Source: Lichina pygmaea (lineage: Eukaryota; Ascomycota; Lichinomycetes; Lichinales; Lichinaceae). Taken from it: a stretch of DNA of 64,000 nucleotides. How positions within the stretch are numbered: the first letter of the stretch is position 1; every line of letters begins with the position of its first letter. The notes below the pieces were generated by a model. That model saw only the letters and a list, made by a program, of their open reading frames with translations. It was not told where the DNA came from and searched no databases. Below are positions 9,433 through 41,594 of this stretch, piece after piece. The translations under genes were made by a program, and so were the position numbers. The stretch is from NCBI GenBank assembly GCA_963422465.1, contig OY730171.1, forward strand, positions 2,294,001-2,358,000, read 5' to 3'.

Positions 9433-9692
9433 CTTCTCTTCTGAGAAATATAAAATACTTCATTTTTCCAGAAGAAAATCAGACAATCTTCAGCTTCAGC
9501 TAAGACTAGGGAATGTGGTTCTAAGACTAAAAGAAGAAGTGTGAGTACTAGAAGTGTATCTGGATGCAAAGCTCCACTAGCATAAACACCAGAGGATTAT
9601 TCTTCAAAAAGTACAGAAAGCACTTTCCTCTCTTTCTAGAACTTCCTACTCAACTTGGGGCTTCCCAGTTCTCACATTATGTCTTGTGTACA

Positions 9693-9802
9693 GCCTGCGA
9701 CGACTCAAACCTCCACGCGGTGCAGGCTGGGAACCTCGGTGCAGTGATGGCAGGCAGTCTCCCAAGCTGCTTGTAGTCGCTGCACTGAGAGCTAATTGAG
9801 TC
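9693..9802 (+). ncRNA. HDV-like self-cleaving ribozyme, copy 1
   Basis: The first 110 nt of W1 fit the nested double pseudoknot. P1 pairs the start GCCTGC with GCAGGC(T) at 9722-9728. P2 pairs GACTCAA (9702-9708) with TTGAGTC (9796-9802). P3 pairs ACC with GGT (9709-9711 and 9719-9721), enclosing loop TCCACGC, whose CC can pair with the GGG after P1 (P1.1). P4 pairs 9735-9747 with 9777-9789. J4/2 is GCTAA, with the presumed catalytic C at 9792. W1 lacks the first G that W2 and W3 have. Structure was read by eye; cleavage is untested. Confidence 0.75.
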
Positions 9803-10829
9803 ACCAGTTGAGCTGCTGGTGCCCGTGGAGTGACAGGCCACCGGAGGTGTTGCGCAGGCACCCTGGACACCCCCGTGAAGTGACATCAGCAGAACAGACG
9901 ACTGCGACCAAACTGGTTATGAAAACCACCCAACAGATGTCTACTGTGTACGCTACAGCCCAAAGCCAGCCCTGCACCTGGTGGATGTGAAGTCTAGGCA
10001 TCCGACAGGGCACCTCTGGAGTAGTCGAGAGGAGTTTTCATCGCACAACCCCCCCTAGCAGAGTCTCCAGCAGCTAATGCGTCGAGGATCTTGTTCTAGG
10101 AGGGGAGTGATATCTGCACCGTGGCATTGTTAATCGAACGGAGAATACGTGTTCAAGAAGGCGAGCAGGCAGCCCGAAGGAAGCCCGCCGCTCCAGTGCC
10201 TAAGGGCTGTGTGATAGCCAAAGTGCTGGCTTGATGGTTTTGCCTAAGGCCTTGCCATGGGTTCCCTTCGGACTACCTGCGGACCGGGGCCGGGGCACCG
10301 GAGATTCTCTGTTCAGAGGTTCTCCGGTGGGTCACCACATACAACCGGGGTCCCACAGGCGACAGCGGGCAGATTGAGACTCCTCCCTACTTGGTTAGTG
10401 GGCTGGAAAGGCAGTCCTGCAGGTGCTGGCATAGCCTGCAGGGTCTGTAGAGTCTGCGAGGCACGGTCGGCCTCTGTACGAGAGATCTACAGAGGTAACA
10501 CGAAACAGCGAGAGCTGCGGGGTGTGGCATATAATAGCAGTGATGGCACTAGGGTCTGGGCCTACTACGAGACTGTCTATATGGCCCGAGAGGACAGAAG
10601 CGCATGCCGGTCTGTACAGAGTGCAGGCTCAGGCTGCAAATGACAGGCTCAAGGAGCAAACTGCAGTTGGAGCGTGGGCTCCGGGCTGGCAACTCGGCGC
10701 TCCGAAGCAGGACCTAGGGGTGAGCGTACACGGCGGAGCGCAAAAGACCTCAGGACTGCGGGGAAGCGTGGCAGAGACCCTGCATGGGATGTCAACTCTG
10801 CGCTATGCCTTGGCATAGCTCAACTTTGG
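9693..10829 (+). mobile_element. W1: GC-rich 1.1 kb non-coding retro-unit
   Basis: 1137 bp, clearly GC-richer than the surrounding LINE sequence, without a believable gene. The same unit recurs at 22023-23139 and, incompletely, at 13877-14390. The 5' end is fixed at the GGCCTGC start, which folds as an HDV-like ribozyme. The 3' end is fixed at about GGCATAG plus 12 bases. LINE-A sequence (L2) follows directly at 10830, joined at an internal LINE position. The left flank is LINE L1, cut at GTGTACA. I find no target duplication for W1+L2, unlike W3. The arrangement matches the WEIRD part of the Magnaporthe MINE composite in size and layout; sequence homology to it is untested. Confidence 0.75.
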
Positions 10830-12497
10830 CTGGCAAGCTGATGGAAGCTATTACAGCAGCCAGACTAAGCAAGGTAGCAGAAGAGGCTAAGCTCTTGCCA
10901 GAAATTCAGATGGGGTTCAGGAAAGGCAGATCAACTGAATCAGCACTTTTCCTTCTAACTTCCCAAGTGGAAAAAGTCTGGAAAGAAGGCATGGTTGCAT
11001 CTCTACTTTCTCTGGACATCTCAGGAGCATATAACAGAGTTCTTCTAGAGATTCTTCAAAAGATTCTGGAGAGAAAAGGAATCCCTCTCTGGCTAACTTC
11101 TTGGATCCTCTCTTTCTGTACCAGACGTACCACCACCCTAGTTTTTGATGACTCTGAGTCCTCTTCTATTCCTATTCACTGTGGAGTCCCCCAAGGTTCC
11201 CCTTTGTCTCCTATTCTTTTTCTATTCTATATTTCTGAACTTCATGAGACTACATTCTCCTACTACTGGTGTTTCTGCTCTGGGATTTGCAGATGATACA
11301 AATCTGCTTGCATTTGGACACTCTCTTAAAAGCAACTTTCTGAAGTTGAAGAATACACATCTTAAATGTCTATCTTGGGCTGCAAGACATGGAATAGTCT
11401 TCTCTCCTGAGAAATATAAAATACTTCATTTTTCCAGAAGAAGATCAGACAATCTGCAGCTCAAGCTTAGACTTGGGAATGTGATTCTAAAACCAAAAGA
11501 AGAAGTGTGAGTATTGGGAGTGTACCTGGATGCCAAACTCCACTGGCACAAACACCAGAGAATTATTCTTCAAAAAGTACAAAAAGCACTATCTTCTCTT
11601 TCTAGAACCTCTTACTCCACCTGGGGCTTTCCAGTTCTCACAGCACAACTTGTGTACACTACAATACTCAGATCTGTACTGAGCTATGCAGTGGGAATTT
11701 GGTTCAACCCACTCAGAAAATCCTCTAATATTTCCTCTCTTATCATATTCCAAAACAAATGTCTGAGACTTATTGGGGGTGCTTTCAAAGCCACTCCTTC
11801 TTTTCTATTAGAGAGTGAGCTTTTTCTTTTACCTCTAGATCTCTATTTAAAATTTCACACAGCTTGTTTTCTATCTTCTATCCAAACCTCCTCTCTGAAA
11901 GACTTTCTTGACAGTACCCTTTCTACTATTTCTTCCTATGCTTCTTCACTGAGGAAACCTTTAAAGAAATCCTCAACTATCTCTCCTAATTGGAAGTTCA
12001 CTTGGTTAAGTCAAATAACTACTAACCAGGCTAGTTCAAAGAAAGAACTACAAATACTCTTTACTAAAGAGTGGGAAAACCAATGGGAGAAGAAGAAAAG
12101 AAAAAGCTATGCTGGATGGCAGGTGTTTTGCCAAAAACCTCACTACAACAACCTAAAGCTCTACAAAAAGCTACAGAAAGCTGAGGCAAGTCTACTACTG
12201 CAAACCAGAACTGGGAGAATTGGTCTAGCAAGTTTTCTTTTCAGAGCTGGAGTCCCTGACTTTCCTACCCCCCTATGCATGTGTGGTCAAGCAGAAAAGA
12301 CAGTAAAGCATATTACCTCTTCATGCTCTCTCTACTCAAGTCAAAGACAACATACTCTCTTTAACCCCCAAGATTTCACTACTATTATTTCAAACCCAGA
12401 GCTTCTACAGAAGTTTCTGTACTGGTTTATGTCTTTGAAAAGACTAAACCAATTTAATCTGGCTTTCAAACTTCACTATTCACACTCCAACATCTAG
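10830..12497 (+). pseudogene. LINE-A ORF2 C-terminal half (RT to zinc finger), damaged
   Basis: Non-LTR reverse transcriptase fragment. The frame shifts near 11250, where two bases (GT) are missing compared with the copy at 48295-50080. It then meets a TGA at 11508-11510, where intact copies have CGA (Arg in EEVRVLG). The rest (11514-12497) is open and ends in the C-terminal zinc finger (PLCMCGQAE, then HITSSC) and the shared C-terminus. I see no RNase H domain between the RT thumb and the zinc finger. Confidence 0.85.
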
Positions 12498-12672
12498 AAG
12501 CTTTTCCTACCAGACACTACAAGATTTCCTTTTGCTACACTTTCTAGTCACCTCCCTGTCTTCAGTTTTTATTCCTTTAAAGGTTTTCTGAAGAAGTTCA
12601 CTATTAGCTGGAAGATCTGTATGGCTGTAAAGCTACAAACAGTGTAAGAATCAAATCAAATCAAAAAAAAAA
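10830..12672 (+). mobile_element. LINE family A copy L2, 5' truncated, fused to W1
   Basis: 1.84 kb from within the RT (GKLMEAI motif) to the LINE 3' tail AGTGTAAGAATCAAATC followed by an A run. It contains the RT palm (GVPQGSPLSPILF), the FADDTN catalytic motif, the thumb and a C-terminal CxC...H...C zinc finger. Its 5' end is directly the 3' end of W1, so L2 is probably the LINE half of a W-LINE composite. Confidence 0.85.
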
Positions 12673-13876
12673 CAAAAGCTAAGATAGTGTTACAGCCAAG
12701 AGCACAGACTCTTGACAGAACAGAATAACCATGACCCAAACAGAAGAACTAACAGACTGAAGTGATCTGTTGGATCTACCTGCTCTAACAACAGAGCAGA
12801 CTTGGCAGATAAGACAACACAACCTCTGAGAGACTCAAAGTACATTGTCCTCTGGTGGAACTAGGAGATTAAAAACAAGATCAAAGAGAAGAGAAAACTA
12901 AGAAGAAAAGTTCTTCAGAACCAAGAGTGTGCAGAAACTTGAAAAGGTGATAAAAGAAAAGAAGTCCCTGATCAAGAATACCAAAAGAAAAACCTTCAGA
13001 ACACAGCTGCAGAACATAGCAGAGACCCAGAAGTACTGGAAGATTGCCAGATAGAGAAAAGAAAAAGCTCACTGGCAAGCTACCAGAACTTCCTATTGTT
13101 CCAGAGCTCACAAAGTATGATAGAGGAATTACTACAACTTTTGCTCAGAAAGCAGAAGTCTTCAAGACCCAGTTCTTCTCTCTCTCTGCAGCCAGAACCA
13201 GAACCTCAAGAACAGCCAGCCAACTACCAACAATACCAGCTATCCCAGGAAATCTCCAAAAAGGAAGTTCAAGAAATCCTGAAAAGAAAAAAACCTTTCA
13301 CGGCCTGTGGAAAAGACACTCTACCTAATAGGTTTCTGAAGGTACTTGGAGACTTCTTCAATAACAAGATAGCCAAAGTGCTGGAGATCTGCTGGAAGCT
13401 GGGTTATTTCCCAACAAGATACAAAGCAGCCAGAACTGTCTGTCTAAGAAAGCCCAGCAAAAGATCTTACTACCAAGCCAAAGTATAGAGGCCAATAGCT
13501 TTTCTTAACATAATTGGAAAGCTGATAGACGCTATTACAGCTACCAGACTGAGTGAGCTGGCTGAGAAAGAAAATCTCTTGCCAGATATCCAGATAGACT
13601 TCAGAAAAGAAAGATCAACTGAGGCAGCACTTTTTCTACTAACTTCTCAAGTTAAAAAAGTCTGGAAAGAAGGACTGGTTACCAGTCTTCTCTCTCTGGA
13701 TATCTCAGAAGCTTATGACAGAGTCTTGCCAGAGGTTCTCAGGAAAATTCTGGAAAAAAAAGAAGTTCCTGACTGGTTTGTTACCTGGATTTCTTCTTTC
13801 ACTACATAGCACACAACTTCTCTTGTTTTTGATAACTCAGAGTCTTCACAATTTCCTATCCACTATGGAGTTCCCA
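12673..13876 (+). mobile_element. LINE copy L4, closer to family B, both ends lost
   Basis: LINE sequence from the end of the endonuclease region into the RT, resembling LINE-B (28846-34316) more than family A, for example VQEILKRKKPF and RFLKVLGD. The first 100-120 bases (from 12673) are of uncertain origin; TAGTGTTAC near 12687 could be an LTR edge. Readable frames are 13096-13488 and 13579-13809, with in-frame stops and shifts between them. At 13876 it is cut by the W2 unit, and its 3' part is not found. Confidence 0.65.
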
Positions 13877-13987
13877 GGCCTGCAACGACTCAAACCTCCA
13901 TGCGGTGCAGGCTGGGAACCTCAGGGCAGCGATGGCAGGCAGTCTCCCAAGCTGCTTGTAGTCGCTGCACCAAGAGCTAATTGAGTC
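13877..13987 (+). ncRNA. HDV-like self-cleaving ribozyme, copy 2
   Basis: This is the best-preserved P1/P2 of the three. GGCCTGC pairs with GCAGGCT, including a G-U pair at the cleavage-site end as in HDV. GACTCAA pairs perfectly with TTGAGTC (13981-13987). P3 is ACC/GGT with loop TCCATGC. J4/2 is GCTAA with the presumed catalytic C at 13977. The base of P4 is weaker than in copy 1, but the GCAGCGA/TCGCTGC core is kept. Confidence 0.72.
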
Positions 13988-14390
13988 ACCAGTCGAGCTG
14001 TTGGTGCCTGTGGAGTGACGGGCCACCGGAGGTGTCGCGCAGGCACCCTGGACACTCCCATGAAGTGACATCAGCAGAACAGAGGACTGCGACCAAACTG
14101 GTTATGAAAAACACCTGACAGATGTCTACCGTGTACACTACAGCCTGAAGCCAGCCCTGCAGCTGGTGGATGTGAAGTCTAGGCATCCGACAGGGCACCT
14201 CTGGAGTAGTCGAGAGGAGTTCCATCGCGCACCCCCCCCCCCCCCCCCCCCCCTAGCAGAGTCTCCAGCAGCTGATGCGTCGAGGATCTTGTTCTAGGAG
14301 GGGAGCGATATCTGCACCGCGGCATTGTTAATCAAACAGGGAGTGCAAAGAAGTGGCATGGGTAGCCCGGGAAAGCAGCAACTTGGGTGT
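13877..14390 (+). mobile_element. W2: incomplete W unit
   Basis: Starts at GGCCTGC at 13877, directly after LINE L4, and follows W1 and W3 closely to about 14335. It then becomes dissimilar and fades out near 14390. No LINE portion follows; host-like sequence does. A run of about 22 C residues near 14235 expands a short C run present in W1. The right limit is uncertain. Confidence 0.65.
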
Positions 14391-20497: not shown

Positions 20498-22022
20498 TTG
20501 CAAAGTGGGGAAAAACAAGCCAACAGGACTCCTGATCTTCCCCTGGTCCCAGATTTGGAAACACAAGAAGGACTAGCTAAAACCTTTGAGGAGAAGACAA
20601 AAGTATTCTCAGCCCAGTTCTTCCCCAAAGCACTTGTTCCAGAACCAAGTACAGAGAGTTCCCAGAGTACTACAGAGATCCAGCTCTCTCAGGAAGTTAC
20701 TGCTGAAGAAGTGGAACAAATTCTGAACAAAAAGAAACCTTTCACAGCAGGGGGAAAAGATAAGCTGCCAAATAGATTTCTGAAAGCTCTGGGTTCCAAG
20801 TTCTGCCAAGCTATGGCTGTTCTCACATCAACATGCTGGAGACTGGAATACTTTCCAGAGAGGTTCAAGAATACAAAGACAGTCTGTCTAAGAAAACCTG
20901 GTAAAGGATACTATAACCAAGCTAAAGCCTGGCGCCCTATAGCTTTGCTAAACACAACTGGCAAGCTGATGGAAGCTATTACAGCAACCAGGCTAAGCAA
21001 GGTAGCAGAAGAAGCTAGACTTTTGCCAGAAATCCAGATAGGCTTCAGGAAAGAAAGATCAACTGAATCAGCACTCTTCCTACTAACTTCCCAAGTGGAA
21101 AAAGTCTGGAAGGAAGGCATGGTTGCATCTCTACTTTCTCTGGATATCTCAGGAGCCTATGACAGAGTTCTACCTAAGATCCTCCAACAAATCCTAGAAA
21201 GAAAAAGAATTCCTCTCTGGCTATCTTCCTGGATTTTCTCTTTCTGCACCAGTTGTTCTACCACTCTTGTGTTTGATGACTCTGAGTCTTCTGCTATTTC
21301 TATTCACTGTGGAGTTCCCCAAGGTTCCCCTTTATCTCCTATTCTGTTTCTATTTTACATTTCTGAACTTCATGAAACTGTACACTCTCCTTCCACTAGT
21401 GTTTCTGCTCTGGGATTTGCAGATGATACAAATCTGCTTGCATTTGGACACTCTCTAAAAAGCAACCTTCTGAAGTTGAAGAACACACACCTGAAATGTC
21501 TATCATGGACTGCAAGACATGGAATAGTCTTCTCTCCTGAGAAATATGAAATACTTTATTTTTCCAGAAGAAGATCAGACAATCTTCAGCTTAAGCTCAG
21601 ACTGGGGAATGTGATTCTAAGACCAAAAGAAGAAGTGCGAGTATTAGGAGTGTACCTGGATGCAAAACTCCACTGGCATAAGCACCAGAGAATTATTCTT
21701 CAAAAAGCTCAGAAAGCACTTTCCTCTCTTTCTAGAACTTCATATTCTACTTGGGGTTTCCCAGTCCTCACATCATGTCTTGTGTACACTGCAATACTCA
21801 GATCTTTACTGAGTTATGCTGTGGGGATCTGGTTCAATCCTCTAAGAAAATCTTCTAGTATCTCTTCTCTTAGCACATTCCAGAACAAATGCCTGAGACT
21901 TATTGGAGGTGCCTTCAAAGCCACTCCATCTTTCTTATTAGAGAGTGAGCTTTTTCTTTTACCTCTAGATCTCTATTTCAAATTTTGCACAGTCTGTTTT
22001 CTCTTTTCTATTCAAACCTCCT
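20498..22022 (+). CDS. LINE-A ORF2 fragment (RT) of L3b
   Basis: About 508 open codons of non-LTR reverse transcriptase: linker, fingers (KPFTAGGKDKLPNRF), palm (LDISGAYDRVLP; GVPQGSPLSPILF; GFADDTN) and thumb (EEVRVLGVYLDAKLHW). Arg is retained at 21638-21640 (CGA). Upstream, near 20510, bases are missing relative to other copies, which takes the 20291-20500 part out of frame. The frame runs straight into W3, so the last residues of the longer open frame (to 22108) are not LINE. Not functional as it stands because the composite interrupts it. Confidence 0.85.
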
Positions 22023-22134
22023 GGCCTGCAACAACTCGAACCTCCACGTGGTGCAGGCTGGGAACCTCAGGGCAGTCAATGGCGGGCAGCTTCCCAGGCT
22101 GCTTGTAGTCACTGCACCAAGAGCTAATCAAGTC
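22023..22134 (+). ncRNA. HDV-like ribozyme, copy 3 (weakened P2)
   Basis: P1 is GGCCTGC/GCAGGCT, P3 ACC/GGT, and J4/2 GCTAA with presumed catalytic C at 22124. All are kept. P2 has two mismatches (AACTCGA opposite TCAAGTC) caused by transition-type differences from copies 1 and 2, so this copy may be slow or dead now. Its 5' edge coincides with the end of the target duplication, which is what a 5'-terminal ribozyme would produce. Confidence 0.68.
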
Positions 22135-23139
22135 ACCAGTCAAGCTGCTGGTGTTGCGGAGTGACAGGCCACCGGAGGTGTCGCGCAGGCACCCTGGACA
22201 CTCCTGTGAAACAGCTACAGCAGAACAGAGGACTGCGACCAAGCTTGGGAGATGAAAACCACCTGACAGACGACTACTGTGTACGCTACAACCTGAAGCC
22301 AGCCCCACAGCTGGTGGATGTGAAGTCTAGGCGTCTGATAGGGCACCTCTGGAGTAGTCGAGAGGAGTTCTCATCATGTCACCCTCCTAGCAGAGTCTCC
22401 AGCTAACGTGTGAGGATCTGCTAGGGGGGGAGTGTCTTGGCACTGCGGTGTTGTTAATCGAACACGGACCACCTGTTAAAGAAGGAGAGTGGTCGTACAA
22501 GAAGACATCACCACTCCAGTGCCTAAGGGCTGTGTGATAGCCAAAGTGCTGGCTTGATGGTTTTGCCTAAGGCCTTGCCACGAAGTCTCTTCGTACAATC
22601 CACAATCTGGGGCCAGGGGACTGGGTTATCCAGTGGGCCAACAGGTGCAACCAGAGCCCCACAGGCGACAGCAGACCAAGGAGAACTCCTCCCTACTTGG
22701 TTAGTGGGCTGGAAAGGCAGCCCCGCAGGTGCTGGCACAGCCTGCAGGGTCTGTAAGGTCTGCGAGGCATAGGCGGCCTTTGTACAAGAGATCTGCGAAG
22801 ATAACACAAAACAGTTAACAACTGCGAGGCGTGGCATATAATGGCAGTGACAGAGGTAGGGTCTGGGCCTACTACGAGACTGTCTATATGGCCCGAGAGG
22901 ACAGATGCGCATGCCGGTTCGTACAGAGTGCAGGCTTAGGCTGCAAAGAACAAGCTCAGAGAGCAAACTACAGTTGGAGTGTGGGCTCTGGGCTGGTGAC
23001 CCAGCGCTCCGAAGCAGGATCCCAGGGGTGAGCACGTACGGCGGAGTGCAAGAGATCTCAGGACTGTGGGAAAGTGTGGTAGAAACCCTGTGGGGGGGGT
23101 ACCAACTCTACACTATGTTCTGGCATAGTACGACTGTGG
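22023..23139 (+). mobile_element. W3: complete W unit
   Basis: 1117 bp, collinear with W1 from the ribozyme to the GGCATAG end. The region between about 22440 and 22510 is the least conserved among the copies, while the GCCTAAGGGCTGTGTGATAG block after it is highly conserved. No gene is evident; open frames such as 22905-23177 are not shared with W1 in a protein-like way. Confidence 0.8.
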
Positions 23140-23846
23140 TCCTCTGGTTCCTGACCTGGAAACACAAGAAGGAATAGCCAAAACCTTTGAGGAAAAGACT
23201 AAAGCCTTCTCACAGAAGTTCTTTCCAAAAGCTCTAGTTCCAGAACCAGGCTCAGAAAGCTCCCAGACTATCTCTGAGATACAACTCTCCCAGGAGGTAA
23301 TATGTGAAGAAGTGGAGCAAATTCTGGCCAAGAAGAAACCTTTCACAGCAGGAGGGAGAGACAAGCTGCCAAATGGATTTCTGAGAGCTCTGGGGCCTAG
23401 GTTCTGCCAAGCTCTAGCTATTCTGACTTCAACATGCTGGAAACTAGAGTACTTCCCTGAAAGATTTAAGAGTGCAAAAACAGTCTGCTTGAGGAAACCT
23501 GGCAAGGGAACCTACAATCAAGCTAAAGCCTGGCGCCCTATAGCTCTGCTAAACACAACAGGCAAGCTGATGGAAGCTATTGCTGCAGCCAGACTAAGCA
23601 AGATAGCAGAAGAAGCTGGACTATTGCCAGATATCCAGATGGGCTTTAGGAAAGGAAGATCCACAGAAGCAGCACTTTTCCTTCTAACCTCCCAAGTGGA
23701 AAACGTCTGGAAGGAAGGCATGGTTGCATCCCTACTCTCACTGGATATCTCAGGAGCCTATGACAGACTTCTCCCCAAGATACTACAGCAAATTCTGAAA
23801 AGAAAAGGAATACCTGCCTGGCTAGCTTCCTGGATCTACTCTTTCT

Positions 23847-24429
23847 TGTTACGACCCAGGAGGAACAAAGTCTTTATACTCACCGAAAGCAGCAGACAGG
23901 ATACTGGACAGAAGTACCAGGCAGCATAACACGGGAAACAGTCACATGACCGGCGAGACTGACCAGGGAGTGCTCGCCGCAGCATGCATATACGTGAGCA
24001 GAGTGAGCAGAGCTTGCCCAGCTTGCCACAGCATGCATAAACAGTGAGCAAAGTGAGCAGAGCTCACCCAGCTCACTGCAGCATGCATAAACAAGTGAGC
24101 AAAGTGAGCAGAGCTCACCCAGCTCACTGCAGCATGCATGAACAAGTGGGCAAAGTGAGCAGAGCTCACTGAGCTCACAGACTGAGCACTATATAGTCTG
24201 GTGATAGTTCCCTTATGGAATGATTATCTTCAACTCATGTTGTGATCCAGACAACTAGATCTACTTCAATACAATCTTGTACAAAGCCACTGATCAGGTG
24301 TCATCACCACCACATTCCACCAAACTCCTTCACACTCCTTGACACTCCTCTCCTGCGAGAACCAACCTGCCTTCCACATCTCACCCTAATCCTATACTCG
24401 GATAGGACAGTACAGTACAGACTGCAACA
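23847..24429 (+). repeat. 5' LTR of gypsy D (Gy1-b)
   Basis: 583 bp. The U3 array is unrelated to Gy1: units of roughly 50 bp built on GTGAGCAAAGTGAGCAGAGC. From the TATATAG box onward it matches the Gy1 LTRs closely. Confidence 0.9.
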
Positions 24430-25585
24430 CTTTGAAGACTCTCAAGGATGAGTACCTCAGGAGCAACCAACCCTAACTTCCCAGATGGAAAGATTAGCGT
24501 TGCCAAGCCAGACCTGTTCTACAGTGAAAGAAACAAGGTCGACGACTGGCTCATGCAACTCCAAGTCTACTTTCAATTCCAACCAGAGATGAAGCTGCCT
24601 AAGGAAAAGTAGCCCCTCTTCACAACCACTTACATGAGAGACAATACTTATTGATGGATCAAGCTCTACGTCAACAGACATCTTTCAGGAAACAGAGACC
24701 ACGACCGCACAACAGAATAGATGACAAAATGGACATGATTCAAGGATAAGATCAAAAGAATCCTTGGACTATCTAACAAAGACAAAGTGGCTATACAAAT
24801 AATCCAGCACATCAAACAATGACACTCAGCCGCAGAGTACACAACGCAGTTCAAACAATACTCAGTACTGACTGATTGGGACAACAACGCCCTGATAGTC
24901 ATGTACTGACGTAGACTCAAGGAAAACATGAAGGATGAAATCACCTTTGACAGACAAGTGGTCAACACACTGGACAAGCTCATCGCACAAGCAATCAACA
25001 TCAATGATAAACTATTCAAGTGAGTGATGGAGAAACACCATGACAGAGGATACAGCCACCCCGCATGGCATGTGAGTAACCACTACAAGCCACCTAACAA
25101 GGCACCACCACATGACCTATATAGCTATGCACCCATGGAACTGGATGCAGTCCACCACAAGGGAAGGTTCACGAAGGGAAGGAACAACAAGAAGGGGAAA
25201 GCACTGAAGTACTATGCCTGTGGCAAGCTAGGCCACATGGTGAGAGACTGTTGTTCAAAGAACAAGGTGCACCAACAGCAACTTAATACACTCAACAGAG
25301 ACTGGAATGTCATCAAGCCAGAGGACCCACCAGGAGAGGCTCAGCTATCCCTCAAACAATAGGACAACTACAATCAGACATTGGAAGCAGCCCACCAACT
25401 GGCAACATCAGGAGGTAAGGATCTACCAGAACAGACAGTTCAGGACAAGGGACAGGAGCCCTTAACCACCTCTGATAGGGACTGAGACAAACTCATGTCT
25501 ATCAAAGAAGAAATACCATGAGGAAGCTATGCTTACAGCATGGACCCACAAAACCTACAGTACGGTGAACTACAGTAGAGGTTTT

Positions 25586-26188
25586 TGTTGTGGTCTGTAC
25601 TGTGCTGTCCTAACTGAGTATAGGATTAAGGGTGAGATGTGGAAGGTGGGTTGGTTCTCGCAGGAGAGGAGTGTCAAGGAGTGTGAAGGGGTTTGGTGGA
25701 ACGTGGTGGTGGTGACACCTGATCAATAGCTTCGTACAAAAAGATTGTATTGAAGTAGATCTAGTTGTCTGGATCACAACATGAGTTGAAGACAATCATT
25801 CCATAGGGGAACTATTGTCAGACTATATAGTGCTGGCCTGTCAAGACAATCAAGATTGTCTTGACAGTCTTGATGTCAAGACAGGTGAGATTGTCTTGAC
25901 AGTCCCACCATGTTATGCACCCTGTGTCAAGACTGGTGAGATTGTCTTGATACTTCATGCATCCTGCGTCAAGACTGGTAAGATTGTCTCAATACTTCAT
26001 GCATCCTGTGTCAAGACTGGTGAGATTGTCTTGATGCTTCATGCATGCTGTGTCAAGACTCCCGTGTGTGTCTTGACAGTCACATAACCCCTTGTTGGTT
26101 GGTCACTTGACTTCCATAGTGTCCTCTTGCCTGGCCCACAGTCTGATTGCCTATAAATAAGTGGCTCCCATCCCATAGGTTATAACAC
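25586..26188 (-). repeat. 3' LTR of gypsy C
   Basis: 603 bp with three to four U3 units, one or two more than the 5' LTR of the same element. Otherwise similar, with scattered transitions. Confidence 0.9.
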
Positions 26189-29052
26189 TACCCTCCTCTC
26201 CTTCATTTATTGTCCTGATGCATTCTTGAGTATGTCTGCAAAATCATGTGTCTCTGCTTACTGAAAACAACTGGCAGCCCAGATCTGTGATCATAACTTT
26301 GTATCGCTTGCTCTGTGTGACTTCTGTGTTTTGAACCACAAGCCCTGCTTCCGAATGTCTGACAACAACAATAAGTTGAAGTACGCTGAATGCACTTATC
26401 GTGGGAAGTCCTGTGTATCACTTTCTTGGGAGTCACTGAACATGACCTGAGATAACCTTCACAAGGATTTGGCTGTTGATGAGGCTAAGTGGGACACTCT
26501 TGTTGAGCAGCTTGCCGAGCTGCAAGCTTGTGTGTCCTGAAAGTGAAAAGTTCTTGAAGGTGCTGAAGGTCAAGCAAAGAAGAAGCTCCAGTGCCTTGTT
26601 GCTGAGATGGAGGCAGATGGTGAAGACTTGTTGGTGACAGTTATTGACACATCTGCACTGCAGGCCAAGCTGTTCAGTCCTGCTGCTGCCGGAACTGCTA
26701 CAGAAGGAGCTGGCAGTTCACAAGGTTCCTGAGTAGTTCCCAGGTATTTTCCGAGTCTGAGTAGTTTTTCCACTTGACAAGGTATCACTGACCTTTTGTC
26801 TTCAAGATCTGTTTGACCTTGAATTCCTGTTCTTCCTCTGGTTGGTAATGAAATGTTTCCTGCAAGAGTGTGCTCTGGTCAGCTAATTCAATCATTAAGA
26901 TGTGAAAGTTTGGGTGTACCTGAGCATCTCTCAGTAGTCGCAGTCTGACATTGACTGGTCTGGTTCTTTCTTCAACTGAAAATAGTCTGACCTTGGTATA
27001 GTCCAGTTTCTTTGTTCTTGGTTTCTTGACTTTCCAATTTTTTGTGAGGAGGTAGACTTTATCCCCCTTCTTCAGCTGAGGTTCCATTTTCAATTTTTTG
27101 TCCATTTGGTGTTACATCTTTTCTGAGGTCTCTTGAAGGTAATGCCTCATCATTGTGTGTGTTTGTTGTAGGAGCTTGTCATGTTGGAGTGCTTTCTCTG
27201 TGTTTGGTGAAGCTCTGCTAGACATTCTGATGTTTGCGTGTTGTCCAAAATTGGCAAAGAATAGTGATTCCTTTGTTGAGTCTGATCTGTGCTAGTTGAT
27301 TGCCAGCTGTGCCACTGGTAATAATTGTACCTAATTGCTGTGGGTCTGGTTGATGTAATGCCGCAAATAAGTCTCCAGGACTTGGTTTGCTTGCTCTGTC
27401 TGGCTGTCAGTTCGTGGGTGATAGGCTGTAGACATTTTGGGTTTTGTTCCCATAGCTGCACTGATTGTCTTCCAGTAGTTGGATGTGAAAAGTTTATCTC
27501 TGTCAGTAATGACTGTGATTGGAACTCTGTGGTCCCTGACCAATCTGTCCAGTAGGAAGTGTCCTGACTGCTTTGCTGTGTGGGTTTCCTTGAATAGTAC
27601 CACTATTAGATATTTTGTGAATCTGTCCACTATCACCATAATCAAGTTGTAGGTGATTCCTGTGACTGGGTCTTTGGACTTGGGTAGCTTTGTGATGAAG
27701 TCTATTGACATGTCTTCTCACAGGCCTCTTGGTATTGTGTTCAGGTGTTCTTCTCTATATGGCTTGTGTCTTCTGTGTTTGTTTTTCTGGCACAGTAGAT
27801 ATTTGCTGATGTAGCTTGTGACACATTGTCAGAGGTTGATGACAATATTCCCTGCCTGTTGAATAAGGTCTGTGGTCTTGGAGATTCCTGGGTGACTATA
27901 TGCTGGATTGTTGTGGTAGTTCCTTATTAATTCCTCAGTGTCTTCTGCCATGAGCTTGTTGATCTGTGGTTGAGGCACCAGGTTCCCTTGCTGGTCCTAC
28001 TGTAAGATCATTCCTTGGTGTTTATCATCTTCCATGTGGTCTTTTCATCAGCTTAGTGTGTCTGCTCTCCTGTTGTCTTGTCTGGGGGTGTACAAGATCT
28101 TAAACTTGTGTTGCCCTAGGAGTTCAGCCTATCTGACTTGCTATCTGTTCAGCTTCTTGGTTGTTGTGAACATTGTCAGATTCTTGTGGTCTGTGAGAAT
28201 AGTGAGTTCAGAACTGCTTTCTGTGTACACTCTCCAGTGTTCAAGTGTGTTGATGACTGCCAGTAGCTCTTTATTGTGGATATCATAGTTTTGTTCTGCT
28301 TGTGTTATTTTTCATGAGTAGTAGGCAACTGGGTACCACTTGCTGTCTGCCTGTTGGCATAAACATACTCCCACTGCCTGATATGAAGCGTCCGTCTTGA
28401 TTTGTGTCAGTTGGCCTGTCTTGAAGTTGAGGAGAACTGGTTTCTTGGCGCAAGTGTTCTTGAGCTGCTGGAATGCTTTTTGTTGTCTCTCTGTCCACCG
28501 GTACTCTACGTTCTTCTTTGTGAGTTCTGTCAGTGGTGTTACTATCTGTGAGTAGTTCTTAACAAACTGTCAGTTGAAGTTGGCAAATCCTAGGAAGGCT
28601 TGTACTTCCTCAACTGATGTCAGTGTTGGCTATTGTTGAATCACTTTGATTTTCTCAGAGTTGATCTTGATCTCTTTGATTCCTATAATATATCTGAGGA
28701 ATTCAACTTCTGGTTTGTTGAACTTGTATTTCTTCAGGTTGAGCTTGAGCCCTGTCTTTTGTAGGCATTGTAGAACATCCTTCACATGTTTGGTATATTC
28801 CTGTTGTGTGTTCGAGTAGACAAGAATGTCATCCAGGTAGGTGATTGTATTTTATTTTATTTTATTCTTACACTGATTTAGCTGTAGAGCCATGCAGAAC
28901 TTCTAGGTACATGTTTGTTTCTCCAGAAAACCTTTGGAGGAATAAAAACTGGAGCTTGGGAGAGACTAGGGAAAATCTTGTGGAATATGCAGTAGCTAAG
29001 GAAATTTGTACATGTAGCTATTTGTTAAAACAAACAGTTGACTTGGTAGAGC

Positions 29053-32000
29053 TTAGAAAGAGAGTTGGTGGGCTAGGTTGAACTGGTCAAGTCTTTTCAA
29101 AGACATAAACCAGAAAAGAAGTTTAGGAAGTAGCTTGGAGGAGAATAAGATAGATGGGAAATCTTGTAGAGGGAATTGGACTTGTTGTCTTTGGTTTGAA
29201 AATTTGTTACAGAAAAAAGTGATGTGTTGGGCTGTTTCTTCTCCAAAACCACATGTGCATAGAGGGGAGTTAAAGTCTGGAACATTTGCTCTGAAAAGAA
29301 AACTGGCCAGTCCTATTCTTGCTGACAGAATTTGAAGAAATAGACTAGACTCAGCTTTTCTCAAATCTTTGAAGATATTGAGGTTCTTCTTCTGTGGCCT
29401 TCTGGTGAACATGTCCCAAATAGCAGAACAATTTCCTCTGCTTACCTGCCATCTGGCTTCCTATTCTTTGTGGAAAACCTCCTGTAGACTTTTCTTTGAG
29501 AAGTCTTGGTTAGTAGTTAGTTGTTCCAGCCAGACTGTTCTCCAGTTTAGAGAAATAGTTGTCAGAGACTTTGGTGTAGTTCTGAGAGAGGAAACATAGA
29601 GAGAAATTTGACTGTGTAGTTTGTGGAGAAGTGTAGAAGGAGAGTTGGGTAGTGTGTTTGAATAGAAAGATGAAAGAAAACATGCTGTTCTCAGCTTGAA
29701 GTATAAGTCTAGAGGGGGTAGAAATAGTTCTGATTCAAGTAGGAAAATAGGAGTGGCTTTAAAGACACCTCCTATAGTTCTTAAACATTTATTTTGGAAA
29801 GTAGATAATGAAATAATATTAGAGAGTTTCTTTTGGGGATTGAACCAGACTCCTACTGCATAACTAAGAAGAGATCTTAGTATAGCAGTGTAGACATGAC
29901 GTGCTGTTAGGACTGGTAGTCCCCAAGTAGAGTAGGTTGTTCTGGATAAAGCTGAGAAATATTTGGAGACTTTCTGTGACATGATTTTTTGGTGTTTTTT
30001 CCAGACAAGTTTTGAGTCAAAGTAAAGTCCCAAGATGCGCACTTCTTCTTTTGGTTGAAGTACCACTTCTCCAAGTCTTAGACTGAGCTGAAGATTGTCT
30101 CTTCTTCTTCTAGAAAAATGGAGAAGTTCATACTTTTCAGGTGCAAACTTCATACCATGTTTTCTTGCCCAGTCCTGACATTTGGAATGTGTAGACTTCA
30201 ACTTGAGAAGGTTGCTTTTCAAGGAGGAGGAGAATGCAAGAAGATTAGTGTCATCTGCAAAACCAAGTGCTGAAACTCCTTTCTCAGGGGTGTGTACAGT
30301 ATTGTGCAGTTCTGAGATATAGAAAAGAAATAGAATAGGAGAGAAAGATGATCCTTGAGGGACTCCACAGTATATAGGGAACTGGGGGGATTCTGAGCCA
30401 TCAAAAACCAGATAGGTAGTACGTGAAGTAGTGAAGGAAAAGATCCAGGATACAAACCACTTAGGAATCATTCTCTTAATCAGGATCTTTCTGAGAACTT
30501 CTGGCAAGACTCTGTCATAGGCTCCAGAGATGTCTAGAGAGAGAAGACTAGCAACCATTCCTTCTTTCCAGATCTTTTCTACCTGGGAGGTCAGAAGAAA
30601 AAGTGCTGATTCTGTTGATCTTCCTTTTCTGAATCCCATCTGGATTTCTGGCAAGAGATTTTCTTTCTCAGCTAGTTCACTTAGTCTTGCAGCTGCAATA
30701 GCTTCCATTAGCTTCCCAATTGTATTCAGGAGAGCTATAGGGCGCCATGCTTTTGCTTGACAGTAGGATCCCTTGCCAGGTTTCCTTAGGCAGATTGTCT
30801 TGGCTGACTTGTACCTGTCTGGAAAGTATTCCAGTCTCCAGCAAGCCTCCAAAACCTTAGCAATTCTTTTGTTGAAAGGGTCTCCCAGTGCTCTTAGAAA
30901 TCCATTTGGTAGAGTATCTTGGCCTGGTGCTGAGAGAGGTTTTTTCTTCTTTAGAACCTCTTGTACTTCTTCCTTGGAGACTTCTTGGGATAGTTGCCAT
31001 TCCTGGGTTTCTTCTGGCAGGTCCTGTTCCTCTGGCTCTGGCTGTAGGGGAAGAGGGAAGAATTGAGTCCTGAAAGCTTCTGTTTTCTCTTCAAAAGACT
31101 TTGCCAGCTGTCCTTGTTGTCCTATAAGTTCTGGGACTATTGGTAGGTCAGGAACTTTGCCGGCTTTTTCTTTTCCCTATTTGGCAATTCTCCAGTAGTC
31201 CTGGGTTTCTGCTAGCTGGTGGAGATGTGTTCTGAATGTCTTTCTTTTGGCTTGTCTGATCAGACTCTTTTTCTTTTTAGTTATCTCCTCTAGTCTGATG
31301 GTTTCCTCTTGGCCTTGGAGTACTTTTCTTCTTACTTTTCTTTCCCCCTGGATTATTTCTTTGATTTCCTGGTTCCACCATGGTACTGCATACCTGGACT
31401 CTTTGCAAGGTTGAGTTGTCTTGTTTGCAATTTCTTGGAGAGTTTTGTCCAGTCTTTCCAGGTAATCATCCACTTCTTTCTTGCTAGTAAGAGATGGAAT
31501 AGGTGGTAGGTTATCAGCTTCTTGTCTTGCTTGACTAGCATCCAGAGTTCTCCAGTTCTTTTTGTCTGTTCTGGTTTTTCTTGGAGTCTCCAGACTGAGA
31601 ATTGTGTGCACTGGTCTGTGGTCTGACCCTGTGTGGAATCTCATGTTAATTTGTGAGTAAATAAGAAAATTAAGTAAAGAACTTGAAATAAAAGAAAGAT
31701 CAATTGCTGATGAAAGTGGTTCTAGAAGAGTTCTTGCTCTTGTTGGTGTGTAGGGAGCTATTGCCAGCTCTAGTCCCTATTTGTCTGTTAGGTTCTTGAA
31801 GGATAAGGCCAGTTCTGAGTATAGCTGGCTTGACTTTGACCAACTGGGGTGGTGGAGATTTGAGTCTGTCAGGAGAATATGTTCACCCTCTTTTTGGATA
31901 GCTTGTTCCAGTAGGTCTAGAAGAGTCTGAGCTGACTCTCTATAGTTCCTTTGGCTTGTGGGTGTGAAATAGAGGTTGTGGATCCAGAATGACTTTGTTT

Positions 32001-32288
32001 GAACTCTTATCTCCAAGGAGACTAGATCTTTACTCCAGAAAATTGGGCTTATAGATGACCGCAAAGTTCTTCTGTTAACAAGAACAAGTGTTCTCCCTAG
32101 CTCCTGGCTTTGTAAAGGGTAGAAGGCTGAGAATGTTGTAGAGATGCTTGATTCTTGGTGGGGGTTTTTCCAGGGTTCTTGCAGAGTGATAATGTCCACT
32201 TCCTGTAGTCTAGGGTTTGCCAGTAGAAGTTCTTGGCATGTCTGGCTTTTCTGGACATTGTACTGGAGAAGGTTAAGTGTGGAGTAAC
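29053..32288 (-). pseudogene. LINE-B ORF2 (endonuclease, RT, zinc finger) with three in-frame TAGs
   Basis: About 1,078 codons in one frame. The APE endonuclease starts LNLLQYNVQKSQ and has LQEPW, LLTDSNLHHPSW and GSDHRPV. The RT has KPLSAPGQDTLPNGF, LDISGAYDRVLP, GVPQGSSFSPILF and GFADDTN. The C-terminal zinc finger is PLCTCGFGEETAQH. In-frame TAG codons lie at 31779-31777, 31179-31177 and 29463-29461. At the last two, family A copies have TGG (Trp), so these are G-to-A changes on the coding strand. No RNase H domain is visible between RT and zinc finger. Length without RNase H fits a compact Tad-like ORF2. Confidence 0.85.
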
Positions 32289-32291
32289 TTA

Positions 32292-33482
32292 TTAATCCTC
32301 TTGGCTAGAGTCTTCCAAGATCTCAGTAGCTTTTTTTCTGGGTATGTTGATTTGGAACTCTGAGTTCTGTGCAAGTGGGAAAGTGGGGAGCTGAGTGTTC
32401 AGTCTTGAGCTTGAGCATGCTCTTAGTACTTCCCCTTGTTTTCTTTTCTTAGCTTCTTGTCTGTCTTGTAGACTTGGCCCTTTTTCTTGTGTTGAGGGAG
32501 TCTGAGGTAGAGCTAGTCTGGGAGCTATTGTGTACCTCCCTGGTCTTGCTAGCCATACCTCTCTTGCTTTCTGGATTGCTTCCTGTTTTTTCTGGCAGGA
32601 CTTTGACCAGGCTGGGTGGTTTCCCTTGCAGTTTGCACATTTTGGTGTTAGAGTTTCTGGAGAAGTCTGGCAGTCTCTTCTGGCATGCTTTCCTCCACAG
32701 GCTGTGCACTGGGCTTGGGCTTGGCAAGTGCGTGCTTGGTGTCCAAACCTAGCACATTTGTAGCACTGGGTGTCTGATGTTGCTAGCAGGGCTGGTTCTA
32801 CTTCATGTAGAGTGTATCCTAGAACTACTCCTTTCTCAATTAGGAGGTTTGCTTGCTCTGGGGTGGCTAGATCCAGATGTAGAGATGTGACTGGCTTCTG
32901 GAGGAGTTTGGCTTTTCTGGACCAGTAGGTTCTTAGGATGTTGACCTTACTTTCCATCCCAGGGTTTTGGGAGAAGATTGTCTTTTTTGTTTCCTCCAGG
33001 TTTTCTGGCTTGAAGTCTTTTGTCTGCACCCCATGGACTAGCACTGGAAAGATTCTGGGTGATATCTTGGCCTCTGCTGTAAAGACAGCTGGGATCCAGT
33101 CCTTGTTTTCCTCTAGCTGAGTCTTGGCTTGAGGAGTTTCCAGAGAGATTATAATATCTTCTGAGGGTAGTTTTCTGGCTGCTCTTATTTCTTTTTGGCA
33201 GAAGAGTGGTGTTTTCTTCTTGAGAGCTTCCATGAGCTGGGCTGGTGTTCTGTTTGCTAACTGGCCAGTCTGAGTTCCAGGTCTGATAGTGATTTCACTG
33301 TGGATTCTGGTTGGAACAGGGATTTCCTGTCCTACTGTTTTCTGGGCTGCCTGGGCATATGTTGGCTTGGTGTTTTGTTTTTGGACTTGTTTCTCAATGC
33401 TGTCCAGTCTCTCAAGTATCTTCTGGAGACTCTGGGAGTTAGGTGAGTGAGTAGAGACATCTTTGTCCAGAGCTTCTGCCAC
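32292..33482 (-). CDS. LINE-B ORF1 protein (gag-like, CCHC knuckles), main part
   Basis: 396 open codons. A predicted helical N-terminal part (SLQKILERLDSIEKQVQ) resembles the oligomerising coiled coil of LINE ORF1 proteins. A central RNA-binding-like region follows, then three Cys/His knuckles: CYKCARFGHQARTC, CTACGGKHARRDC and CANCKGNHPAWSKSC. The likely full start is the ATG at 33694-33692 (MSKKKPEKEK). That N-terminal segment is out of frame here because two bases are missing compared with copy B2, and one TGG reads TAG. In B2 the same region is in frame but has CAA to TAA instead. The role is binding the LINE RNA. Confidence 0.85.
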   Translation of the reverse strand: MAEALDKDVSTHSPNSQSLQKILERLDSIEKQVQKQNTKPTYAQAAQKTVGQEIPVPTRIHSEITIRPGTQTGQLANRTPAQLMEALKKKTPLFCQKEIRAARKLPSEDIIISLETPQAKTQLEENKDWIPAVFTAEAKISPRIFPVLVHGVQTKDFKPENLEETKKTIFSQNPGMESKVNILRTYWSRKAKLLQKPVTSLHLDLATPEQANLLIEKGVVLGYTLHEVEPALLATSDTQCYKCARFGHQARTCQAQAQCTACGGKHARRDCQTSPETLTPKCANCKGNHPAWSKSCQKKQEAIQKAREVWLARPGRYTIAPRLALPQTPSTQEKGPSLQDRQEAKKRKQGEVLRACSSSRLNTQLPTFPLAQNSEFQINIPRKKATEILEDSSQED

Positions 33483-36400: not shown

Positions 36401-37011
36401 TGGTGTTTCTCCATCACTTGCTTGAATAGTTTGTCATCGATGTTGATTGCTTGTGTGATGAGCTTGTCCTGTGTGTTGACCACTTGTCTGTCAAAGGTGA
36501 TTTCATCCTTCATGTTTTCCTTGAGTCCACATCAGTAGATGACCATCAGAGTGTTATTGTCCCAGTCAGTCAGTACTGAGTATTGCTTGAACTATGTGGT
36601 GTACTCTGTGGCGGAGTGTTGTTGTTTGATGTGCTGGATCATTCGTATAGCCACTTTGTCTTTGTTAGATAGTCCAAGAATCCTTTTGATCTTGTCCTTG
36701 AATTGTGTCCATTTCATTATCCATTCTGATATGCTATCATAGTCTCTGTTTCCTGAGAGATGTTTGTTGACGTAGGGCTTGATCTATCAATAAGCATTAC
36801 CTCTCATGTAAGTGGTTGTGAAGAGGGGCCACTTCTCCTTAGGCAGCTTTGTCTCTGGTTGGAATTGAAAGTAGACTTGGAGTTGCATGAGCCAGTTGTC
36901 AACCTTGTTTCTCTCGCTGTAGAACAGGTCTGGCTTGGCAACGCTAATCTTTCTATCTGGGAAGTTGGGGTTGGTTGCTCCTGAGGTACTCATCCTTGAG
37001 GGTCTTCAAAG

Positions 37012-37570
37012 TGTTGCAGTCTATACTGTACTGTCCTATCCGAGTATAGAATTAGGGTGAGAGGTGGAAGGTGGGTTTGTTCTTGCAGGAGAGGAGTGTC
37101 AAGAAGTGTGAAGGGGTTTGGTGGAATGTGGTGGTGGTCACACCTGATCAATAGCTTTGTACAAAAGGATTGTATTGAAGTAGATCTAGTTGTTTGGATC
37201 ACAACATGAGTTGAAGATGATTGTTCTATAGAGGAACTATCATGAGACTATATAGTGCTGGCCTGTCAAGACAATCAAGATTGTCTTGACAGTCTCAACA
37301 TCAAGACAGGTGAGATTGTCTTGACAGTCCCACCATGTTATGCACCCTGCATCAAGACTGGTGAGATTGTCTTGATGCTTCATGTATCCTGTGTCAAGAC
37401 TGGTGAGATTGTCTTGATGCTTCATGCAAGCTGTGTCAAGACTCCGGTGTGTGTCTCGACAGTCACGTGACCCCTTGTTGGTTGGTCACTTGACTTCCAT
37501 AGTGTCCTCTTGCCTGGCCCGCAGCCTGATTGCCTATAAATAAGTGGCTCCCATCCCATGGGTTGTAACA
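37012..37570 (-). repeat. 5' LTR of gypsy C
   Basis: 559 bp with two U3 units. The primer-site word CTTTGAAGAC follows it in element sense. Confidence 0.9.
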
Positions 37571-41402: not shown

Positions 41403-41594
41403 TCACTTCTGAGACAGACAAACTTGCACTGCAGCAAGTTGTTCAAAGAGTGCGTCGTGTGTTGCCTCTTCAGCAGCCATATCCTCACGAAGATTGTCCC
41501 AGGATATGTTCAGAGACTCCCAGGACACAGAGACACAAGACCTTCCACGCTGAGTGCACACAGCACATTTCAACTTATCATCTTTCCCTGGCAT
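41403..41594 (-). CDS. antisense Cys-rich small ORF in gypsy D
   Basis: 63 codons on the strand opposite to pol, between chromodomain and 3' LTR, homologous in place and sequence to 8526-8765. This frame keeps the second half of the cluster, C-x2-C-x6-C (CAVCTQRGRSC), followed by the same SWESLN motif and a charged helix (EEATHDALFEQLAAVQ). Confidence 0.5.
   Translation of the reverse strand: MPGKDDKLKCAVCTQRGRSCVSVSWESLNISWDNLREDMAAEEATHDALFEQLAAVQVCLSQK

What the first reader, a model, noticed from the sequence alone, without database searches (positions are those of the whole stretch)
9693..9802. HDV-like self-cleaving ribozyme at the exact 5' end of a fungal W unit
All three W copies (9693, 13877, 22023) start with a sequence that fits the HDV-type nested pseudoknot. 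There is a 7 bp P1 with G-U at the cleavage site (GGCCTGC/GCAGGCT), a 7 bp P2 that is perfect in two copies (GACTCAA/TTGAGTC), P3 ACC/GGT, and a C-rich L3 able to form P1.1 with the following GGG. A long P4 and a GCTAA J4/2 with catalytic C complete it. HDV-like ribozymes are known at 5' ends of R2, RTE and L1Tc elements, where they release the element RNA. Here one heads a gene-less unit fused to Tad-like LINE sequence.
Basis: partly seen in the sequence, partly recalled or inferred. Interest (0 to 1): 0.95.

Follow-up and report, generated by a model that had tools for sequence, protein, structure and literature searches.

The report
Self-cleaving RNA heads fungal hitchhiker element
A gene-less 1.1 kb sequence present in about 250 copies in this fungal genome begins, at its exact first base, with what looks like a self-cutting RNA of the hepatitis-delta type, which would explain how its RNA gets a precise front end before retrotransposon enzymes copy it into new places.

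Summary
Confirmed, and stronger than first stated. The first ~111 bases of the W unit fit the HDV nested double pseudoknot. Rfam's HDV model (RF00094) gives 85 matches in the 32.5 Mb genome (best 43.9 bits, E 6e-4; none reaches Rfam's 50-bit cut-off), and all 85 are W 5' ends. 92 copies read begin at the predicted cleavage base behind unrelated flanks. In 47 distinct sequences 96% of the pair cells are kept, with two-sided changes in P2 and P4.

W is a 1117-1161 base noncoding unit fused to 5'-truncated LINE copies: the anatomy of the MINE/WEIRD chimeras of Magnaporthe (Gogvadze 2007), whose WEIRD RNA has no known function or source gene. Of 68 full W copies with downstream DNA read, 57 run into LINE coding sequence and 11 into DNA shared with LINE parts of other copies, at 61 different points; four nearly identical W copies have four different junctions. 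So W RNA seems supplied in trans with fixed ends, and LINE reverse transcriptase jumps onto it.

Best reading: an HDV-like ribozyme makes the 5' end of a WEIRD-type RNA parasitic on LINEs. Cleavage is untested and no source gene was found. New variant of a known kind; the open surprise is where W RNA comes from.

The parts
9692..9802 (+). HDV-like ribozyme of W copy 1: P1 9692-9698/9722-9728 (A1-U37), P2 9702-9708/9796-9802, P3 9709-9711/9719-9721, L3 9712-9718 with P1.1 CC to GG at 9729-9730, P4 about 9735-9789, J4/2 AGCTAA 9790-9795 with the candidate catalytic C at 9792
   Evidence: sequence, descriptor hit with 0 P2 mismatches, alignment A1
9692..10829 (+). W unit copy 1, full length, ending ...CAACTTTGG
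10830..12680 (+). 5'-truncated LINE (RT) joined directly to W copy 1, with an A-rich/AATC tail (end approximate)
   Evidence: sequence; tblastn to LINE proteins
13877..13987 (+). HDV-like ribozyme of W copy 2 (G1-U37, perfect P2)
   Evidence: RF00094 34.3 bits, E 0.34 in the 64 kb window
13877..14337 (+). W copy 2, cut at W base 447; upstream flank is LINE sequence
22010..22022 (+). Left target-site duplication ATTCAAACCTCCT, abutting base G1 of W copy 3
22023..22134 (+). HDV-like ribozyme of W copy 3 (subfamily B; two P2 mismatches)
22023..23139 (+). W unit copy 3, full length, ending ...CGACTGTGG
23140..23846 (+). First part of the 5'-truncated LINE joined to W copy 3
23847..42391 (.). Nested insertions interrupting the W3-LINE element (right edge approximate; edge motif TGTTACRACCCAGGAGGAAC at 23847 and 41761)
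   Evidence: inferred
42392..43969 (+). Remainder of the W3-linked LINE with AATAA-type tail (left edge approximate)
   Evidence: LINE ORF 42158-43777
43970..43982 (+). Right target-site duplication ATTCAAACCTCCT of the W3-LINE insertion

Best explanation
W is a noncoding RNA hitchhiker of about 1.12-1.16 kb of the WEIRD type. Its first ~111 nt are an HDV-like self-cleaving ribozyme that cuts its own transcript just before base 1, whatever the upstream promoter or sequence, and so gives every W RNA the same 5' end. During target-primed reverse transcription a LINE reverse transcriptase copies LINE RNA from the 3' tail, leaves it, mostly at a CC, jumps to the free 3' end of a W RNA (...CUGUGG), and copies W to the ribozyme-made 5' end. 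The chimera is then sealed in, giving target duplication | W | truncated LINE | tail | target duplication. Shown by sequence: the fold and its conservation, exact starts, fixed W 3' end, varied junctions, target duplications. Inferred: that the RNA cleaves, that the cut is at base 1, and that W RNA has a free 3' end in the cell.
For: RF00094: 85 genome matches at E<=10 (86 scored of 1614 first-look candidates), best 43.9 bits, E 6e-4; all 85 are W 5' ends: 57 by coordinates, 27 by sequence, 1 (C6:402952) by the W 3' end. Start: 91 rows with 91 distinct upstream flanks, 84 reading GGCCTGC, information 0.19 bit at -1 and 1.69 bits at +1 (the start is set at a fixed offset from a core motif); L106, missed by that motif, starts the same way. 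Target duplications of 10-16 nt abutting base 1 after a LINE tail in 12 of 24 copies (W3 checked). Pairs: 96.1% of cells standard against 27-36% when slid; 42 double-change cells, shuffled mean 17.5, 0 of 500. W 3' end fixed and followed by LINE: tblastn 57 of 68, blastn to LINE parts of other copies for 11 (L106 only from base 253, L078 only its first 61 bases). 61 distinct junctions in 68; first base C in 55, CC in 40 (background 25% and 6%). L085-L088: nearly identical W, four junctions; junction CC|ATGTTCTG occurs in W lineages A1 and A2. 250 5' cores and 264 3' ends genome-wide.
Against: No biochemical proof. All RF00094 scores are below the gathering score of 50, and the model's control also rings, below cut-off, in 4 of 14 prokaryote genomes. 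A loose descriptor fits by chance. The number of pairs with two-sided change (5; shuffled 3.7, 101 of 500) and of further pair types (19; 19.2, 416 of 500) is not above shuffles. Without pseudoknots the MFE of the 112-nt piece is 2.7-8.4 kcal/mol below the nested P1/P3/P4 fold, and in L086 it uses P2 instead of P1 (three copies). Twenty of 47 distinct sequences break P2 pair 15-109 and 15 break 11-113, mostly in subfamily B. In 12 of 24 copies no convincing target duplication was found in the DNA held. W lineage and partner LINE are strongly associated (A1 17/18 and B 10/10 with AT-rich partners, A2 18/22 with GC-rich; p 7e-9), which a freely shared RNA would not predict unless activity periods or recognition differ. 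No source gene was found.
Confidence: 0.8

Rival explanations
1. W is a host noncoding RNA made from one ordinary, unmethylated gene (as Gogvadze et al. proposed for WEIRD); the ribozyme is part of that RNA's processing and the LINE copies are accidental pseudogene chimeras.
For: The youngest A copies keep CpG (o/e 0.75-0.79; a host ORF 1.10; AT-rich LINEs 0.00-0.12), and two young A lineages differ without CpG excess (L086 v L071: 9 of 42 transitions), as expected of a source protected from the decay seen in inserted copies (62-92% of transitions at CpG in six of seven pairs; the seventh, L086 v L016, crosses lineages and has 38%). Fixed 3' end. WEIRD is well expressed in Magnaporthe (PMC2104539).
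Against: None of the 68 W downstream regions read is clearly a solo W, including the nine copies closest to L086 (first nine rows); about 180 further copies were not read downstream. W lineages go with LINE families. CpG retention is not proof of a gene: three short GC-rich LINE pieces beside young A2 copies have 0.82-0.88 (others 0.14-0.63), young B copy L053 has only 0.56, and A against B differences do show CpG excess (37-40%).
Confidence: 0.35
2. The W-LINE chimera itself is the breeding unit, like R2/R1 SIDEs: it is transcribed from neighbours, cut by the ribozyme and re-inserted whole.
For: W-W-LINE tripartite insertions (L107, L108) could have used a W-LINE RNA as template. Two pairs of copies with the same or nearly the same junction, L014/L020 and L012/L018_7214, are neighbours in the W tree.
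Against: 61 distinct junctions in 68 copies and nearly identical W with four junctions. The junctions of those two pairs recur elsewhere in the W tree (L087, L069). The tripartite cases are equally explained by two successive template jumps.
Confidence: 0.15
3. W is maintained as an extrachromosomal self-cleaving RNA, possibly circular (viroid- or retrozyme-like), that LINEs occasionally reverse-transcribe; it has no DNA gene.
For: Ribozyme plus fixed ends at both termini, no solo gene among the copies read, and young A lineages that differ without the CpG decay of integrated DNA. For WEIRD too no solo copy was found.
Against: No head-to-tail W-W junction in the genome (0 matches of one exact pattern). 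No second ribozyme in the window (E<=1) or in 8 loci (E<=0.1), both strands. The fold is branched, not a rod, 66-67% paired, z -3.3 and -1.6 in two copies. No match of a 28-nt core in IMG/VR. A against B differences do show CpG excess.
Confidence: 0.12
4. The 5' end folds like an HDV ribozyme but is not catalytic; the exact start reflects a capped transcription start of a W gene.
For: No cleavage data; sub-threshold Rfam score; many subfamily-B copies have broken P2.
Against: The positions expected to be catalytic are well kept: P1.1 98.9% paired and the cut-site pair G1-U37 in 43 of 47 distinct rows, A-U in the other 4; CTAA of J4/2 in 54 of 54 rows. In the 12 copies with a target duplication no extra base lies between it and base 1.
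Confidence: 0.1

Closest known systems
MINE chimeras (WEIRD + 5'-truncated MGL LINE) of Magnaporthe grisea, Gogvadze et al. 2007 (PMC2104539; parts 1-3 of 5 read)
   Same: Full-length 1.1 kb noncoding unit (WEIRD 1113 nt; W 1117-1161) fused to LINE copies truncated at many points, direct repeats, tripartite cases, recurrent junction sites (there GCC*A/U; here CC, then mostly A or T), no solo copy found.
   Different: Here the unit's first ~111 nt form an HDV-like ribozyme; about 250 copies; two main subfamilies, one with sublineages; several LINE partners.
[quoted passage not shown] abstract start and passages seen)
   Same: Noncoding element headed by an HDV-like ribozyme, the hybrids moved by another LINE's machinery; the R2 ribozyme makes the precise 5' end; in vivo template jumps to other RNAs.
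   Different: SIDEs derive from R2 by internal deletion and keep one structure; W has no LINE match of its own in the window and is rejoined to LINE at a new point almost each time.
HDV-like ribozymes of L1Tc/ingi, NARTco and SIDER elements in trypanosomatids (PMC4035085; abstract start and passages seen) and of R2, R4, Dong (PMC3774820; passages seen)
   Same: Ribozyme at or near the 5' end of retroelements, proposed to release RNA from cotranscripts.
   Different: Those ribozymes belong to autonomous LINEs or their deletion derivatives. The LINEs in this window show no RF00094 hit at E<=1, but neither do W copies 1 and 3, so that test is weak.
Retrozymes (hammerhead; PMC7761336 and PMC11721086, passages seen)
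   Same: Noncoding, ribozyme-bearing, thought to be mobilised in trans.
   Different: Hammerhead, circular RNA intermediates; circularity of W unknown and no W-W junction seen.

Membership tests
HDV-like ribozyme | Nested double pseudoknot P1, P2, P3, P1.1 plus P4 with HDV spacing | tested here: met
   96.1% of cells paired over 38 pairs, slid controls 27-36%; P4 by RNAfold
HDV-like ribozyme | Covariance-model support (RF00094) | tested here: inconclusive
   best 43.9 bits, E 6e-4 genome-wide, model 1-89 in all 85 matches, but 0 of 85 reach the gathering score 50; 5 of 8 W-bearing loci at E<=0.1; 1 of 3 window copies at E<=1
HDV-like ribozyme | Compensatory change in the helices | tested here: met
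   two-sided changes in 5 pairs (2 in P2, 3 in P4), none in P1, P3 or P1.1, which hardly vary; cells 42 v 17.5 shuffled, 0/500; but pairs 5 v 3.7, 101/500. Caveat: related sequences, CpG transitions
HDV-like ribozyme | Catalytic C in J4/2 and C-rich L3 able to form P1.1 | tested here: met
   CTAA of J4/2 in 54 of 54 rows; P1.1 98.9% paired. That this C is the catalytic one is recalled from HDV
HDV-like ribozyme | Self-cleavage 5' of G1, Mg-dependent, leaving 5'-OH | not testable with these tools
   indirect only: the copies read start there
MINE/WEIRD-type LINE chimera | Full-length noncoding 5' unit joined to 5'-truncated LINE, same orientation | tested here: met
   57 of 68 by tblastn, 11 by blastn to LINE parts of other copies; 4 truncated or interrupted W copies (L015, L021, L055, window copy 2) were left out, and in 2 more (L107, L108) W is followed by W
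MINE/WEIRD-type LINE chimera | Short direct repeats flanking the whole chimera | tested here: met
   12 of 24 copies; in 12 of 24 no convincing repeat in the DNA held
MINE/WEIRD-type LINE chimera | Sequence homology of W with WEIRD | not tested
   no WEIRD sequence was at hand
Viroid-like circular RNA | Rod-like fold, ribozyme on both strands, multimeric junctions | tested here: not met
Retrozyme | Hammerhead ribozyme, circular RNA | tested here: not met
   no hammerhead hit on either strand of the window (E<=1) or of 8 loci (E<=0.1); circularity not testable
LINE 5' UTR ribozyme (R2/RTE type) | Ribozyme is the fixed 5' end of one autonomous LINE | tested here: not met
   junctions at 61 points, in more than one LINE family

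The most novel reading that the evidence does not exclude
W (and WEIRD) is a gene-less, self-cleaving RNA that persists in fungal cells outside the chromosomes, with lineages specialised on different LINE families; its hundreds of genomic copies are only fossils made when LINE reverse transcriptase jumps onto it.
Probability: 0.12. Interest if true: 0.92.

Novelty: new variant of a known kind. Interest (0 to 1): 0.63.

Why it matters
It offers a concrete mechanism for a puzzle open since 2007: why the WEIRD-type RNA in fungal MINE chimeras is always copied full length although no gene for it was found. It puts an HDV-like ribozyme on an RNA that seems to be captured in trans rather than on a LINE or its deletion derivative, and makes the origin of that RNA testable: a hidden gene, processed chimeras, or a free RNA. 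The match between W lineages and LINE families suggests specialised parasitism rather than accident.

Tried and rejected
Loose HDV descriptor in Python: not specific (16 and 14 hits on the window's strands; 463 in 60 shuffled single strands), so dropped as evidence. Viroid-like rod: not supported. W-W head-to-tail dimers: one exact pattern, 0 matches. W in other collections: 0 in viral contigs; 1 match of a 19-mer in a Segatella genome, judged a chance match because no P1 or L3 partner stands around it. CpG test: fixed A/B differences showed no CpG excess (17 of 79 transitions), but columns with 90% agreement under-sample CpG sites, so single young copies were compared instead. There L086, L071 and L076 against subfamily B give 37-40% of transitions at CpG, above a background near 20%; L071 v L076 gives 5 of 11 and L071 v L072 0 of 7; so the no-decay argument rests on L086 against L071, L072 and L076 (20-23%). 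The LINE control was mixed: AT-rich LINEs are nearly CpG-free, GC-rich ones range from 0.14 to 0.88. In one search my filter failed to exclude W itself, so only about 18 rows show the true LINE upstream, and the microhomology count printed there is not used. In one search the added rows were off by one base; corrected, whose motif missed L106. Two 24-nt repeats (L013, L027) do not follow a LINE tail and were not counted as target duplications. Organism: the nearest relative bearing a name of one 971-aa ORF is from the lichen fungus Lepraria neglecta at 26% identity, so a lichen-forming ascomycete is only a guess.

Novelty searches: the listings (open-licence PMC library) show no paper joining an HDV-like ribozyme to WEIRD/MINE or to a fungal LINE chimera; most of the listed papers were not opened. 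[quoted passage not shown] Absence there is not proof.

Full report
WHAT IS THERE. The window lies in a 32.47 Mb genome of 8 contigs. Its three W units start at 9692, 13877 and 22023. W is 1117-1161 bases in the 50 full copies compared, GC 0.55-0.62 in 19 copies computed. An 18-base W 3' pattern has 264 matches in the genome (2 mismatches allowed; reversed control 5) and a 28-base ribozyme core 250 (3 allowed; control 0), so most W copies are probably complete at both ends.

THE RIBOZYME. Structure on base numbers of W: P1 1-7/31-37 with G1-U37, P2 11-17 with the seven bases after J4/2, P3 18-20/28-30, L3 21-27, P1.1 C22 C23 with G38 G39, a P4 of 19 counted pairs, J4/2 AGCTAA. On alignment A1 (54 sequences, 47 distinct) 96.1% of 1786 cells form standard pairs, 27-36% when partners are slid. 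Two-sided changes occur in 5 of 38 pairs (shuffled 3.7, 101 of 500 as high) and 42 cells (shuffled 17.5, 0 of 500); further pair types, 19, are not above shuffles (19.2). The best pair is P2 16-108, G-C mostly in subfamily B and A-U in subfamily A. P1, P3 and P1.1 hardly vary, so they give no covariation either way. Of the 90 rows with both P2 strands read, 59 have no mismatch; most of the others are subfamily-B rows with G-to-A or C-to-T type changes.

INDEPENDENT MODEL. RF00094 on the whole genome: 1614 candidates, 86 scored, 85 matches at E<=10, best 43.9 bits and E 6e-4, none over the cut-off. All are W 5' ends: 57 by coordinates, 27 by sequence read, and C6:402952 by the W 3' end found 1.1 kb downstream. 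In the window only copy 2 shows, and in a test of 8 W-bearing loci 5 were hit at E<=0.1. The same search rang below cut-off in 4 of 14 control prokaryote genomes at the lax E of 10, so weak hits by themselves mean little; the weight lies in the ranking and the position.

EXACT 5' END. 91 rows, aligned at a fixed offset from a core motif, have 91 different 12-base upstream flanks; 84 read GGCCTGC at bases 1-7 and the other 7 differ from it by one or two bases. L106 was missed by the motif and starts the same way. Position -1 carries 0.19 bit, +1 carries 1.69. The copies were found by their 5' 200 bases, by RF00094 or by the full unit, so 5'-truncated copies are under-sampled, but copies reaching further upstream would have been seen. 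Target duplications abut base 1 in 12 of 24 copies (10-16 nt; L011's 10 nt is within its shuffled maximum). For W3 the duplication ATTCAAACCTCCT stands at 22010 and 43970, the element being split by nested insertions.

3' END AND PARTNERS. In 48 of 50 full copies W ends in CTGTGG (exceptions: window copy 1 CTTTGG, L082 GTGTGG), and of the 18 others read at the 3' side one reads CTCTGG (L099). Left out of this count are four truncated or interrupted copies (L015, L021, L055, window copy 2). Of the 68, 57 continue as LINE by tblastn to window LINE proteins and 11 by blastn to LINE parts of other copies, L106 only from 253 bases on and L078 only over 61 bases. The 68 junctions use 61 points; the first base is C in 55 and CC in 40 (25% and 6% expected). 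Two further insertions are W + 5'-truncated W + LINE (L107, L108). L085-L088 have nearly identical W and four junctions; junction CC|AAGACAATCTG occurs in two separate places of the W tree (L014/L020 and L087) and CC|ATGTTCTG in lineages A1 and A2. This looks like end-to-end template jumping onto a W RNA with fixed ends.

KNOWN PARALLEL. Gogvadze et al. 2007 (PMC2104539; parts 1-3 of 5 read) describe the same anatomy in Magnaporthe: WEIRD, 1113 nt, noncoding, well expressed, always fused to a truncated retroelement, junction motif GCC*A/U, no source gene, no homologue. W is of this kind; homology could not be tested. R2/R1 SIDEs (PMC3414825, passages) and trypanosomatid SIDERs (PMC4035085, passages) are noncoding elements headed by HDV-like ribozymes.

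WHERE DOES W RNA COME FROM? None of the 68 downstream regions read is clearly a solo W, including the nine copies closest to L086; about 180 copies were not read on that side. Inserted copies differ from a young copy of their lineage by transitions mostly at CpG (62-92% in six pairs), but L086 and L071, two young A lineages, differ without CpG excess (9 of 42); A against B does show an excess (37-40%). The youngest A copies have CpG o/e 0.75-0.79 against 0.00-0.12 in AT-rich LINEs; GC-rich LINE pieces range from 0.14 to 0.88. W lineages go with LINE families: A1 17 of 18 and B 10 of 10 with AT-rich partners, A2 18 of 22 with GC-rich ones (partner judged by GC of up to 130 bases; shared ancestry and activity periods not corrected for). 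A protected source gene, processed chimeras or a free RNA all remain possible; the fold and the lack of W-W junctions speak against a classical viroid.

VERDICT. Steps shown: fold, conservation, exact start, template-jump anatomy. Steps inferred: cleavage, free 3' end, source.

Noticed in passing
L107 (G000:C4:3400293, - strand) and L108 (G000:C5:3624828, + strand): Tripartite insertions W + W truncated at base ~210 or ~234 (closest to window copy 3, subfamily B) + truncated LINE, like the tripartite chimera reported in Magnaporthe.
   Followed up: partly
window 29461-33542, 48295-50079, 54776-56749: These AT-rich LINEs are almost free of CpG (o/e 0.04-0.06) while a neighbouring host-like ORF (15148-18063) has 1.10: strong CpG loss in some repeats.
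   Followed up: partly
50 full W copies: Strong match between W lineage and the base composition of the LINE partner (Fisher p 7e-9, not corrected for shared ancestry).
   Followed up: partly
G000:C1:541-1663 (L106): A full W, 97% identical to L086, 0.5 kb from a contig end, joined to sequence that matches LINE 5' regions from base 253 on, so perhaps heading a long LINE copy.
   Followed up: no
window 24042-24129: Repeated GTGAGCAAAGTGAGCAGAGCTCACCCAGCTCACT units in what looks like a nested retroelement; a sub-threshold MIR8788 hit there looks like a chance match to the repeat.
   Followed up: no
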